A stretch of DNA of 64,000 bases from positions 124,001 through 188,000 of the forward strand of contig CALSMN010000005.1 in the NCBI GenBank assembly GCA_943787465.1, read 5' to 3'. The notes under the pieces are model-generated. The model was given only the letters and a program-made list of their open reading frames with translations. It ran no database searches and was not told where the DNA came from. Origin of the DNA: an uncultured Bacteroidia bacterium (GTDB taxonomy: Bacteria > Bacteroidota > Bacteroidia > NS11-12g > UBA9320). The position numbers and the translations under genes were made by a program. Below are positions 60,026 to 63,059 of the stretch, piece by piece. Position 1 is the first letter of the stretch. Every line of letters begins with the position of its first letter.

Positions 60026-61405
60026 CTAAGCTGTAAGCTCTTTGATATCCGATTTAATTTTATTGACTAAACTGTTAGCTACACTCAGGGTACTTCCTTC
60101 GGCATAAATGCGTATAATGGGTTCTGTGTTGGATTTTCGTAGATGCACCCACTCTGTATCAAATTCTATTTTCACGCCATCCACCGTATTTATAGGTTGA
60201 TTTTTATATTTATCTTGAATACGATCAAGGATAAAATCTACATCTATATCAGGAGTCAGTTCCATTTTATTTTTACTAATAATATAATTTGGATAAGAGG
60301 CTTTAAGGTGACTTATGGGTTGATTTACTTTAGCAAGATGAGTGAGAAATAATGCAATACCCACTAACGCATCTCTTCCATAATGAAGTTCAGGTAAAAT
60401 AATACCCCCATTTCCTTCACCTCCAATAATGGCATTGGTATCTTTCATCATTTTCACTACGTTGACCTCTCCTACAGCGCTAGCTTGGTAGGTTCCACCA
60501 TGTTTTTCCGTAACATCTCTTAAAGCACGTGTGCTGGATAAATTAGAGACGGTATTCCCTTTTTTATGACTGAGAACGTAATCTGCTACAGCAACTAATG
60601 TGTATTCTTCTCCAAATACATCTCCATTTTCATTGACAAATGCTAAACGGTCTACATCCGGATCTACCACAATACCTAGATCCGCTTGATGACGAATAAC
60701 GGCTGAAGATAAATCTGTCAAATGTTCGGGCAATGGCTCCGGATTATGGGGAAATTTCCCAGTAGGCTCACAAAAGAGCTCAATAACTTGGTTGACCCCC
60801 AGTTTTTTTAACAGAAGGGGTACAGCAATACCTCCAGTTGAATTGACGGCATCTACCACAATGGTAAAATTACGTTGGCGTATGGCTGCAGTGTCAATTA
60901 AATCTAGGTTTAAAATCGCATCAATATGCCAATTTATATACGCTTCTCGAGTTGTATAACTGCCTATCTGATCAATAGAAGCATATGAAAAATCGTTGGA
61001 TCCGACTTGACGAATAATTTCATTACCTAAAGCCTCCGAAATAAATTCTCCTTTTGCATTGAGTAATTTTAAAGCATTCCATTGTTTGGGATTATGACTT
61101 GCCGTAATAATAATCCCTCCAGCGGCCTCTTCGTTTACAACAGCCATTTCCACTGTAGGTGTGGTACTTAAGCCTAAATCAATGACGTCTATACCCTTAC
61201 TCATAAGCGTACCACAAATCAATTGATTGATCATAAACCCTGACAATCGAGCATCGCGACCAATGACAATTTTACGGTTTTCAGCCGTTAAAATTTTATC
61301 TGCAAAAGCCGTCGTGTATTTAACAATATCTAAGGGAGTTAACGATTCGTCCTCTACCCCACCAATTGTTCCTCGAATACCCGATATTGATTTAATTAAT
61401 GTCAT
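60026..61405 (-). CDS. glmM: Phosphoglucosamine mutase (alpha-D-phosphohexomutase)
   Basis: 459-residue phosphosugar mutase. The phosphoserine loop is GIIITASHNPKQWNALKLL near residue 100; the metal loop is VDPDVDRLAF; the sugar loop is GEGNGGIILPELHYGRDALVG; the phosphate-binding C-terminal loop is RKSNTEPIIRIYAEG. The N-terminal ISGIRGTIGG is GlmM-like. Glucosamine 6-phosphate to 1-phosphate for peptidoglycan and LPS is the likely reaction; phosphomannomutase activity is the alternative. A -7-like TTTATTTG is just upstream. Confidence 0.9.
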   Translation of the reverse strand: MTLIKSISGIRGTIGGVEDESLTPLDIVKYTTAFADKILTAENRKIVIGRDARLSGFMINQLICGTLMSKGIDVIDLGLSTTPTVEMAVVNEEAAGGIIITASHNPKQWNALKLLNAKGEFISEALGNEIIRQVGSNDFSYASIDQIGSYTTREAYINWHIDAILNLDLIDTAAIRQRNFTIVVDAVNSTGGIAVPLLLKKLGVNQVIELFCEPTGKFPHNPEPLPEHLTDLSSAVIRHQADLGIVVDPDVDRLAFVNENGDVFGEEYTLVAVADYVLSHKKGNTVSNLSSTRALRDVTEKHGGTYQASAVGEVNVVKMMKDTNAIIGGEGNGGIILPELHYGRDALVGIALFLTHLAKVNQPISHLKASYPNYIISKNKMELTPDIDVDFILDRIQDKYKNQPINTVDGVKIEFDTEWVHLRKSNTEPIIRIYAEGSTLSVANSLVNKIKSDIKELTA

Positions 61406-61528
61406 ACGTTCAATTGCAAATAAACAACCAATATGCGTCTATTTTTCCATCATATTAATAACAACTTTTTGGCATGATGTGGATTATGTAACTAAAATTT
61501 AGGGAATCGCATAAAAATCATATCCATT

Positions 61529-61544
61529 TATGATATATATCATA
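61529..61544. repeat. 16-bp perfect palindrome, candidate operator
   Basis: TATGATATATATCATA is fully self-complementary. It lies 21 bases upstream of a weak -7-like AACATTTG (61566-61573), about where a regulator would cover the -33 region of the small-peptide locus. The 447-base gap between glmM and the next long gene otherwise contains only the features listed (palindrome, leader, peptide, terminator). Confidence 0.45.
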
Positions 61545-61660
61545 TTTTTACTATTTTTTATTTAAAACATTTGACCCTTGGAGTTAGTTGAAAATCCTGT
61601 CGCTCGCATATCACGAGGGCACTAAAGCGAGTAGGCACAACACTTTATCATATACTTTAC

Positions 61661-61729
61661 ATGAAAAAATTAAGTGTAAAAAAACAACGAACCGTTGTTG
61701 CTGGAGGAGATCATACCTATGGCTGGTAA
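61661..61729 (+). CDS. 22-residue putative RiPP/bacteriocin-like precursor peptide with Gly-Gly
   Basis: Short frame with a basic leader starting MKKLSVKKQR, a hydrophobic TVVA, then GG and a six-residue tail DHTYGW before TAA. A Lys-rich N-terminus followed by GG is the usual layout of leaders cut by C39 peptidases, and MKK-L-x-x-KK starts are common in Bacteroidota RiPP precursors. The adjacent downstream gene carries the N-terminus of exactly such a C39 exporter. There is no Cys, so it is not a standard lanthipeptide; Asp, His, Thr, Tyr and Trp are modifiable. The gene is too short to be sure by statistics alone. Confidence 0.55.
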   Translation: MKKLSVKKQRTVVAGGDHTYGW

Positions 61730-61788
61730 TTTTTCTTATACATAAGAAAAAATTGCTACCTATAATGGGTTGCTCTATTCCATAATTT

Positions 61789-61833
61789 AAAAATCACCAA
61801 TCATGAACAAAATATTGCTTTGGTGATTTTTTT
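61789..61833 (+). terminator. Terminator (possible attenuator) between the small peptide and the C39-HlyD fusion gene
   Basis: Perfect 12-bp stem (AAAAATCACCAA/TTGGTGATTTTT) with a 19-base loop and a T7 run. It is preceded by a weaker A/T hairpin right after the peptide stop (TTTTTCTTAT/ATAAGAAAAA, 61730-61751). It ends 18 bases before the next ATG, so the downstream gene is read only by readthrough or from a promoter I cannot see. Confidence 0.8.
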
Positions 61834-61851
61834 ATACCTACTAAAACATAC

Positions 61852-62595
61852 ATGTCTAAAATTATTCACTTTTTTAAAAAAAAGAACATCAAACCTTTTC
61901 CTTTTATCCGTCAAACCGGTATGATGGAGTGTGGCACAACCAGTTTGGCCTACAATCGATACTATCAGTCCGTGGAAGATTATAAAATTCAAGTCATATC
62001 AATAAACAAAATGATCAATAGTCTGAAGACTGAAATTAGTAAGTTTACAACTGAAAATTATAAACTAACAACCAATTATGAAGCAATAACCTTTGATTTA
62101 ACCTCGGAGATTGATAATCTTAAATCAAAAATCAGGAACATCTACGGTGACTTCCAAATATCAGATGATGGGCTGTATCTAATTTCAGATAGAAAAGGAC
62201 AGATTACTTACATAAAAACATCAGATTGGCAAATTGACGCTCAAGCAGTGATTGTAAAAATTTTACCTCAAAATAGAATTCAAGAAATCGTATGTCTTAT
62301 CCCACCGCATAAAATTGGACAGATTCAATCAAAAGCAAAGGCATCCATTCAAATAGCCAGTTTTCCAACATATACATGGGGTACCCTTCAAGGATACGTA
62401 AAAAATTATAGCCAGACACCAGACGAAAACGGAAATTATCTTGCAACAATTATCATCAAAGACTATGGAAAACTAGCTCCGATGATACGACCCAGTATGC
62501 AAGGCACAGCATACATCATCTATGAAAATAAAACATTACTTGGTTATCTCGTAAGCACAGTGAAACAAAAATATGATTCTTCTATAAACACATAA
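61852..62595 (+). CDS. Fusion of C39 bacteriocin-exporter N-terminus to HlyD-type C-terminus (probable deletion scar)
   Basis: 247-residue product. Residues 1-34 (HFFKKKNIKPFPFIRQTGMMECGTTSLAY ends it; catalytic Cys27 in MECG) match the start of a peptidase C39 domain of bacteriocin ABC exporters, but the catalytic His and Asp, membrane helices and ATPase are absent. From about residue 40 the protein is a coiled coil (~45-95: INKMINSLKTEISKF) and then the lipoyl/beta-barrel part of an HlyD membrane fusion protein (GQITYIKTSDWQIDAQAVI, IPPHKIGQIQSKAKASIQI, SMQGTAYIIYENKTLLGYL). The HlyD membrane anchor is missing. An in-frame deletion joining two neighbouring genes is the simplest reading; it is unlikely to export anything by itself. 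Confidence 0.75.
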   Translation: MSKIIHFFKKKNIKPFPFIRQTGMMECGTTSLAYNRYYQSVEDYKIQVISINKMINSLKTEISKFTTENYKLTTNYEAITFDLTSEIDNLKSKIRNIYGDFQISDDGLYLISDRKGQITYIKTSDWQIDAQAVIVKILPQNRIQEIVCLIPPHKIGQIQSKAKASIQIASFPTYTWGTLQGYVKNYSQTPDENGNYLATIIIKDYGKLAPMIRPSMQGTAYIIYENKTLLGYLVSTVKQKYDSSINT

Positions 62596-62655
62596 ATCTA
62601 ATCTTGTTCATATCACGTGAATAAACCTAGTGTTCTATAAGCGTTTAAAAAACTA

Positions 62656-62663
62656 TACATTTG
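62656..62663 (+). promoter_or_regulatory. -7 element TACATTTG (rnpB)
   Basis: Exact TAnnTTTG three bases before the predicted 5' end of RNase P RNA. Confidence 0.7.
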
Positions 62664-62666
62664 TGA

Positions 62667-63033
62667 AGGCAAAACGGCTTATCGCGGGTGGATGTATGTT
62701 CATTTGAGGAAAGTCCGGGCAACATAGAGTAATGTACCTTTGGAAACAAAGGGTGTATGCGTTGAAAAACGAATACAACAGCAAGTGTAACAGAAAATAA
62801 CCGTTTGCTTTGGCGAATAAGGGTGAAAAAGTGAGGTAAGAGCTCACACGCTTGAATAGTAATATTCATTCGGTACAAACCTTACATGTTGTAAAACCAA
62901 GTAAACTACAGATTTAGAGCTACTCGTTCTAATGCTTGTTTATTCAAGATGCTGTAGAGGGTAGGTTGCATAGATAAATGATAAGCTCATTCGCCTTGGC
63001 GAAGAGACAGAACCCGGCTTATAGTTTTGCCTT
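62667..63033 (+). ncRNA. rnpB: RNase P RNA (bacterial type A)
   Basis: Catalytic RNA that matures tRNA 5' ends. The conserved core GAGGAAAGTCCGGGC is at 62706-62720 (P4 5' half and CR-I), and the matching 3' core ACAGAACCCGGCTTAT is at 63007-63022. The 5' end AGGCAAAAC (62667-62675) pairs with GTTTTGCCT (63024-63032) as P1, directly followed by a T-run that should end transcription. GGTAAGAGCTCAC at ~62837 is a further typical segment. Ends are set by P1 pairing and may be off by a few bases. The minus-strand ORFs here are shadows. Confidence 0.94.
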
Positions 63034-63059
63034 TTTTAAAAAAAAATGAATTAGAAAAT

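What the first reader, a model, noticed from the sequence alone, without database searches (positions are those of the whole stretch)
61661..61729. Unannotated 22-residue Gly-Gly peptide: candidate minimal RiPP precursor
A tiny frame with basic start MKKLSVKK, then VVA-GG and the tail DHTYGW sits directly before a gene that begins with the N-terminus of a C39 peptidase exporter. The sequence shows the frame, the GG and the neighbour; family knowledge says C39 peptidases cut after GG; that this is a secreted or signalling peptide is inference. A six-residue core with His, Tyr and Trp and no Cys would be among the smallest known and does not match a class I know.
Basis: partly seen in the sequence, partly recalled or inferred. 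Interest (0 to 1): 0.75.

Follow-up and report, generated by a model that had tools for sequence, protein, structure and literature searches.

The report
Relic of a peptide-export gene set
A tiny Gly-Gly peptide frame sits in front of a gene that is only the two stuck-together ends of a peptide exporter and its adaptor, so this is most likely the leftover of an ordinary peptide-secretion gene set rather than a working miniature peptide system.

Summary
The 22-codon frame (61661-61729, MKKLSVKKQRTVVAGGDHTYGW) is really there, and the next gene does begin like a C39 peptidase exporter. But that gene (61852-62595, 247 aa) is not an exporter. Its first ~33 residues match the N-terminus of C39 peptidase-ABC transporters; the rest matches the C-terminal half of an HlyD adaptor. 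This is what an in-frame ~2.8-kb deletion in a precursor - C39-ABC - HlyD operon would leave (inferred). The 99.5%-complete genome has no C39 peptidase, nor do the other 37 genomes of its family. The 1.1-kb stretch carrying both frames is absent from the same site in the four nearest congeners. No relative of the 22-mer turned up in 18 congeners, the class sample, or a tail-pattern scan of genome contigs. The leader has one of the four hydrophobic positions C39 peptidases use. Best reading: a vestigial double-glycine precursor beside a broken exporter, not a functional minimal RiPP. It is ordinary gene decay, with a small residual chance that the orphan peptide is still made and used.

The parts
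61487..62604 (.). 1,118-nt stretch between the glmM upstream region and RNase P; 35-42 nt instead in the four nearest congeners
61511..61548 (.). Dispersed intergenic repeat with palindrome ATGATATATATCAT (61530-61543); four places in this genome counting this one, others in G013, G006 and G009; looks like a Crp/Fnr-type box (recalled consensus)
61661..61729 (+). 22-codon frame MKKLSVKKQRTVVAGG/DHTYGW, probable double-glycine precursor or its shortened remnant
   Evidence: no family match
61721..61760 (+). Strong hairpin that starts inside the last codons and covers the stop
   Evidence: 61720-61850 folds with z -3.94
61789..61837 (+). Terminator-like hairpin (perfect 12-bp inverted repeat, then T run) between the peptide frame and the fusion gene
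   Evidence: not listed by the consensus scan, whose loop limit of 8 excludes it
61852..61950 (+). N-terminal ~33 residues of a C39 peptidase-ABC exporter, with the Q...ECG cysteine box, cut off before the His and Asp
61951..62595 (+). C-terminal ~214 residues of an HlyD-type adaptor, fused in frame to the C39 start

Best explanation
The locus is the relic of a peptide-secretion cassette of the usual layout: GG precursor, C39 peptidase-ABC exporter, HlyD adaptor. An in-frame deletion of about 2.8 kb (inferred from the sizes of intact relatives) joined codon ~33 of the exporter gene to about codon 225 of the adaptor gene, removing the catalytic His/Asp, the membrane and ATPase domains and the adaptor's first half. 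In the intact ancestor the exporter would have cut the precursor after Gly-Gly and secreted the tail with the adaptor (inferred from the family). Now nothing in this genome can do that by a C39 peptidase, so the 22-codon frame is an orphan, possibly shortened itself, probably without a secreted product.
For: Fusion: residues 1-33 align with C39-ABC N-termini (F16, P17, C27, G28 and L32 invariant in all 7 rows), while PHROG 4949 matches residues 34-240 at profile 225-439 of 447 (E 1.3e-8) and TIGR01843 matches 133-242 at 298-416 of 422 (E 6.3e-11, under its curated cut-off). Plasmid hits, the best over residues 21-237, are annotated HlyD adaptors, one beside a bacteriocin-secretion ABC gene. 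Intact order precursor - C39-ABC - HlyD is seen in the order relative G059 (L006: GG peptide of about 100 aa, 745-aa ABC, 431-aa HlyD), and C39-ABC - HlyD in G199 (L050). No PF03412 in the own genome, 0 of 38 in the family, 1 of 108 in the order. Site empty in the four nearest congeners, which form the sister clade. The fusion frame's codon score (0.142) is below all nine window genes used as the standard (0.308-0.443) and the held-out sigma-54 regulator (0.399), as expected of foreign or unconstrained DNA. The leader fits only -4 (V) of the hydrophobic positions -4, -7, -12, -15 described for GG peptides (passages of PMC7018657).
Against: The fusion is open for 247 codons with no stop, so it is either recent or still constrained; no relative allows a selection test. 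The direct parent operon was not found in any search, so the deletion is inferred, not shown. The peptide frame has a native-like codon score (0.443, but only 22 codons), and hairpins after it suggest it could be transcribed. The 33-residue C39 match is short (best E 8.4e-5, per genome, among 395 genomes).
Confidence: 0.7

Rival explanations
1. The 22-codon frame is a live minimal GG precursor; it is made, cut by some other protease or exporter, and the hexapeptide DHTYGW is secreted as a signal or toxin.
For: Rare composition for a chance frame; own hairpin and terminator; a Crp/Fnr-like box upstream; the genome has other ABC exporters (3 PF00664 matches over cut-off) and HlyD-like proteins.
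Against: No C39 peptidase in the genome; no relative of the frame in the searched genomes; leader lacks hydrophobic residues at -7, -12 and -15; adjoining exporter gene broken.
Confidence: 0.08
2. The 22-codon frame is not a gene; it is a chance frame or part of the 5' leader RNA of the relic, and GG is coincidence.
For: No homologue; leader mismatch; no NCBIfam match (HMMER filters may drop a 22-mer).
Against: Such a frame is expected about 0.006 times in this stretch and it sits where a precursor gene belongs, just upstream of the C39 gene start, as in L006.
Confidence: 0.18
3. The 247-aa fusion is a functional new protein: a C39-type N-terminal tag on an adaptor fragment.
For: In-frame junction, 247 codons open.
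Against: No second copy in 107 other genomes of the order (as DNA) or in the viral and genome collections; low codon score; the fusion lacks the N-terminal half of an adaptor.
Confidence: 0.05
4. The join is an assembly error and the intact operon is present in the organism.
For: The junction was not checked against reads (none available here).
Against: The place lies inside a 311-kb contig of a 10-contig, 99.5% complete assembly, and no C39 domain is found on any contig.
Confidence: 0.04

Closest known systems
Double-glycine peptides with C39 peptidase-containing ABC transporters (PCATs), as in Bacteroidales RiPP clusters (PMC10352776) and bacteroidetocins (PMC6671954)
   Same: Small basic-start frame with GG just upstream of sequence from a C39-ABC gene and an HlyD gene, in the order seen in L006.
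   Different: Exporter reduced to ~33 residues fused to an adaptor end; leader of 16 residues with one of four recognition positions; six-residue tail; no modifying gene seen next to it.
HlyD/CvaA-type adaptors of bacteriocin and type I secretion (TIGR01843; the name CvaA is recalled)
   Same: Residues 34-240 of the fusion match the C-terminal half.
   Different: The first half is missing; the protein starts with C39 sequence instead.

Membership tests
GG peptide exported by a PCAT | GG (or GA/GS) ending a leader | tested here: met
   G15 G16
GG peptide exported by a PCAT | Hydrophobic residues at -4, -7, -12 (and -15) | tested here: not met
   V at -4; R, S and K at -7, -12, -15 (read; positions from passages of PMC7018657 and PMC6959990)
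GG peptide exported by a PCAT | A C39 peptidase in the same genome | tested here: not met
   0 matches to PF03412 in G000; control genomes 8 of 14 positive
GG peptide exported by a PCAT | Homologues with conserved leader and variable tail | tested here: not met
C39 peptidase-ABC exporter (neighbour gene) | Catalytic Cys, His, Asp plus membrane and ATPase domains | tested here: not met
   only the Cys box; no PF03412, no ABC domain
HlyD adaptor (neighbour gene) | Full-length adaptor above curated cut-off | tested here: not met
   41.9 bits against 208.65; C-terminal part only
RiPP precursor | Modifying enzyme beside the precursor | tested here: not met
   immediate neighbours are glmM, RNase P and a sigma-54 regulator; the rest of the genome was not searched for RiPP enzymes
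RiPP precursor | Modified product | not testable with these tools
   needs peptidomics

The most novel reading that the evidence does not exclude
A living orphan signal: after loss of its exporter the host kept the 22-codon frame, transcribes it from an Fnr-like box and releases the hexapeptide DHTYGW by a non-C39 route, which would be among the shortest GG-derived products.
Probability: 0.04. Interest if true: 0.6.

Novelty: new member of a known kind. Interest (0 to 1): 0.14.

Why it matters
It shows how a gene start can mislead: a C39 N-terminus does not mean a C39 exporter. Broken exporter cassettes leave orphan GG frames that mining for small peptides could mistake for minimal precursors.

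Tried and rejected
Attenuator leader peptide (tail with His, Thr, Tyr, Trp before a terminator): rejected as main reading because each of these residues occurs once and the downstream gene is not biosynthetic; no Rfam match of weight in 61400-62660 (one chance match, E 3). Mobile-element ends: the repeat search of 61400-62700 showed no direct repeat flanking the stretch. Parent operon: none found by protein in the genus (only an HlyD in G006 at another site, 23-25% identity), in genome contigs or viral contigs, or as DNA in the order (other matches are short). Weak 22-mer hits: of six besides the own one, five overlap long frames on one strand or the other (L053, L054, L055, L057, L058) and the sixth (L056, G803, ending AGGDACNGYIRYLC) lies between genes with no C39 motif in the 16 kb fetched (its upstream DNA folds no better than shuffles). 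The two tail-pattern places (L059, L060) are unlike the frame outside the pattern. Literature: (search listings with starts of abstracts); passages only of PMC6959990, PMC7018657 and PMC10352776; PMC6671954 seen as listing and start of abstract only. No structure prediction was run.

Full report
What is there. The frame 61661-61729 reads MKKLSVKKQRTVVAGGDHTYGW and stops. In the 64-kb window 521 ATG frames of 15-60 codons were counted; five contain GG and only this one also has at least three K/R in the first ten residues with a GG starting at residues 13-31. A simulation with local composition expects about 0.006 such frames in a stretch of this length on one strand; the criteria were chosen after seeing the frame, so this is a guide, not a test. 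Downstream lie a hairpin over the stop codon and a terminator-like hairpin (perfect 12-bp inverted repeat; the consensus scan did not list it), then the gene 61852-62595.

The neighbour is a fusion of two gene ends. Its first ~33 residues align with the starts of C39 peptidase-ABC exporters. The first 47 residues, searched in 395 genomes of the phylum, gave seven hits besides itself at E up to 0.01. Four of these (L047, L049, L050, L052) lie at the start of ABC genes of 719-729 residues; one (L048) and another (L051) lie at C39 starts whose frames are broken further on; one (L046) has a stop inside and is cut by its contig end. Five of the seven, plus L006, were aligned (L046 and L051 left out). 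From residue 34 on the protein matches the C-terminal half of HlyD adaptors: PHROG 4949, residues 34-240 at 225-439 of 447; TIGR01843, 133-242 at 298-416 of 422, below its curated cut-off; 87 plasmid records at E up to 1, 15 listed, 14 of them with an HlyD or adaptor name and one without annotation. Pfam has no match of weight and the solved-structure search only a weak membrane-fusion-protein match (E 0.014). A boundary at residue 33/34 seen from both sides argues for a join of two genes. In intact relatives the exporter precedes the adaptor (L006; L050), so one deletion of about 2.8 kb would do it. That size is arithmetic from relatives, and the deletion is inferred.

No exporter remains. 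PF03412 has no match in the whole genome (1.97 Mb, 99.5% complete), in 0 of 38 genomes of the family (own genome included) and in 1 of 108 of the order; the control rang in 8 of 14 known genomes. The fusion keeps the cysteine box but none of the rest of the peptidase. The genome does hold three ABC exporters over the Pfam cut-off and other HlyD-like proteins; since one search found no C39 domain, none of them carries one.

The stretch is peculiar to this lineage as far as sampled. Of 18 congeners, 15 gave the neighbouring regulator at E up to 1e-80 (16 of 19 with the own genome), and the site was fetched for 14 (G014 was split between contig ends and left out). In four (L024-L027) only 35-42 nt lie between the glmM side and the RNase P side, against 1,118 here; nine (L028-L035 and L037) carry an endonuclease/exonuclease-like gene (named from its sequence, by recall); one (L036) has 572 nt without a long frame. 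L030 is cut by its contig end, and L028 and L032 are cut inside glmM. A tree of glmM and RNase P/regulator DNA (13 genomes and the window, L030 dropped) places the window as sister to the four empty-site genomes (support 1.0), so gain here or loss in the sisters are both possible. As DNA the stretch has no counterpart in 107 other genomes of the order except short matches.

The peptide has no known relatives. Search of 18 congeners: none. The class sample of 395 genomes (own included) gave six others with hits at E 0.27-0.96, none near a C39 motif (the one worth a wider look). The pattern GG-[D or N]-HTYGW, as DNA with third-base freedom, gave two chance places in genome contigs (one genome for each of 84,980 species, by the tool's description) and none in viral contigs. 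These searches would miss relatives with a diverged tail in genomes not sampled. GG leaders bind C39 domains through hydrophobic residues at -4, -7, -12 and -15 (passages of PMC7018657; L at -12 and -7 and the role of -4 in PMC6959990); here these are V, R, S, K. Either the leader has been shortened too or the frame was never a good substrate.

Judgement. The most likely story is decay of an ordinary peptide-secretion cassette. The open frame of the fusion and the neat peptide frame leave a small chance that something is still made.

Noticed in passing
61511-61548: Dispersed intergenic repeat around ATGATATATATCAT, at four places in the genome counting this one and at places in G013, G006 and G009; resembles a Crp/Fnr-type operator (recalled consensus). 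The palindrome ATGATNNNNATCAT occurs once in the window.
   Followed up: partly
62666-63037: RNase P RNA (RF00010, 198.8 bits); the small frames listed across it are therefore probably spurious.
   Followed up: yes
L005 (G006:C101:6000-15800): Type I-like set: 104-aa protein, ABC without C39, HlyD, outer-membrane-like protein, with similar secreted-protein frames on both sides; an HlyD/ABC pair also lies in the own genome at C5:206438-209091.
   Followed up: no
L028-L035, L037 (glmM-RNase P interval): Nine more distant congeners carry an endonuclease/exonuclease-like gene at the same site, absent from the window and its four nearest congeners.
   Followed up: partly
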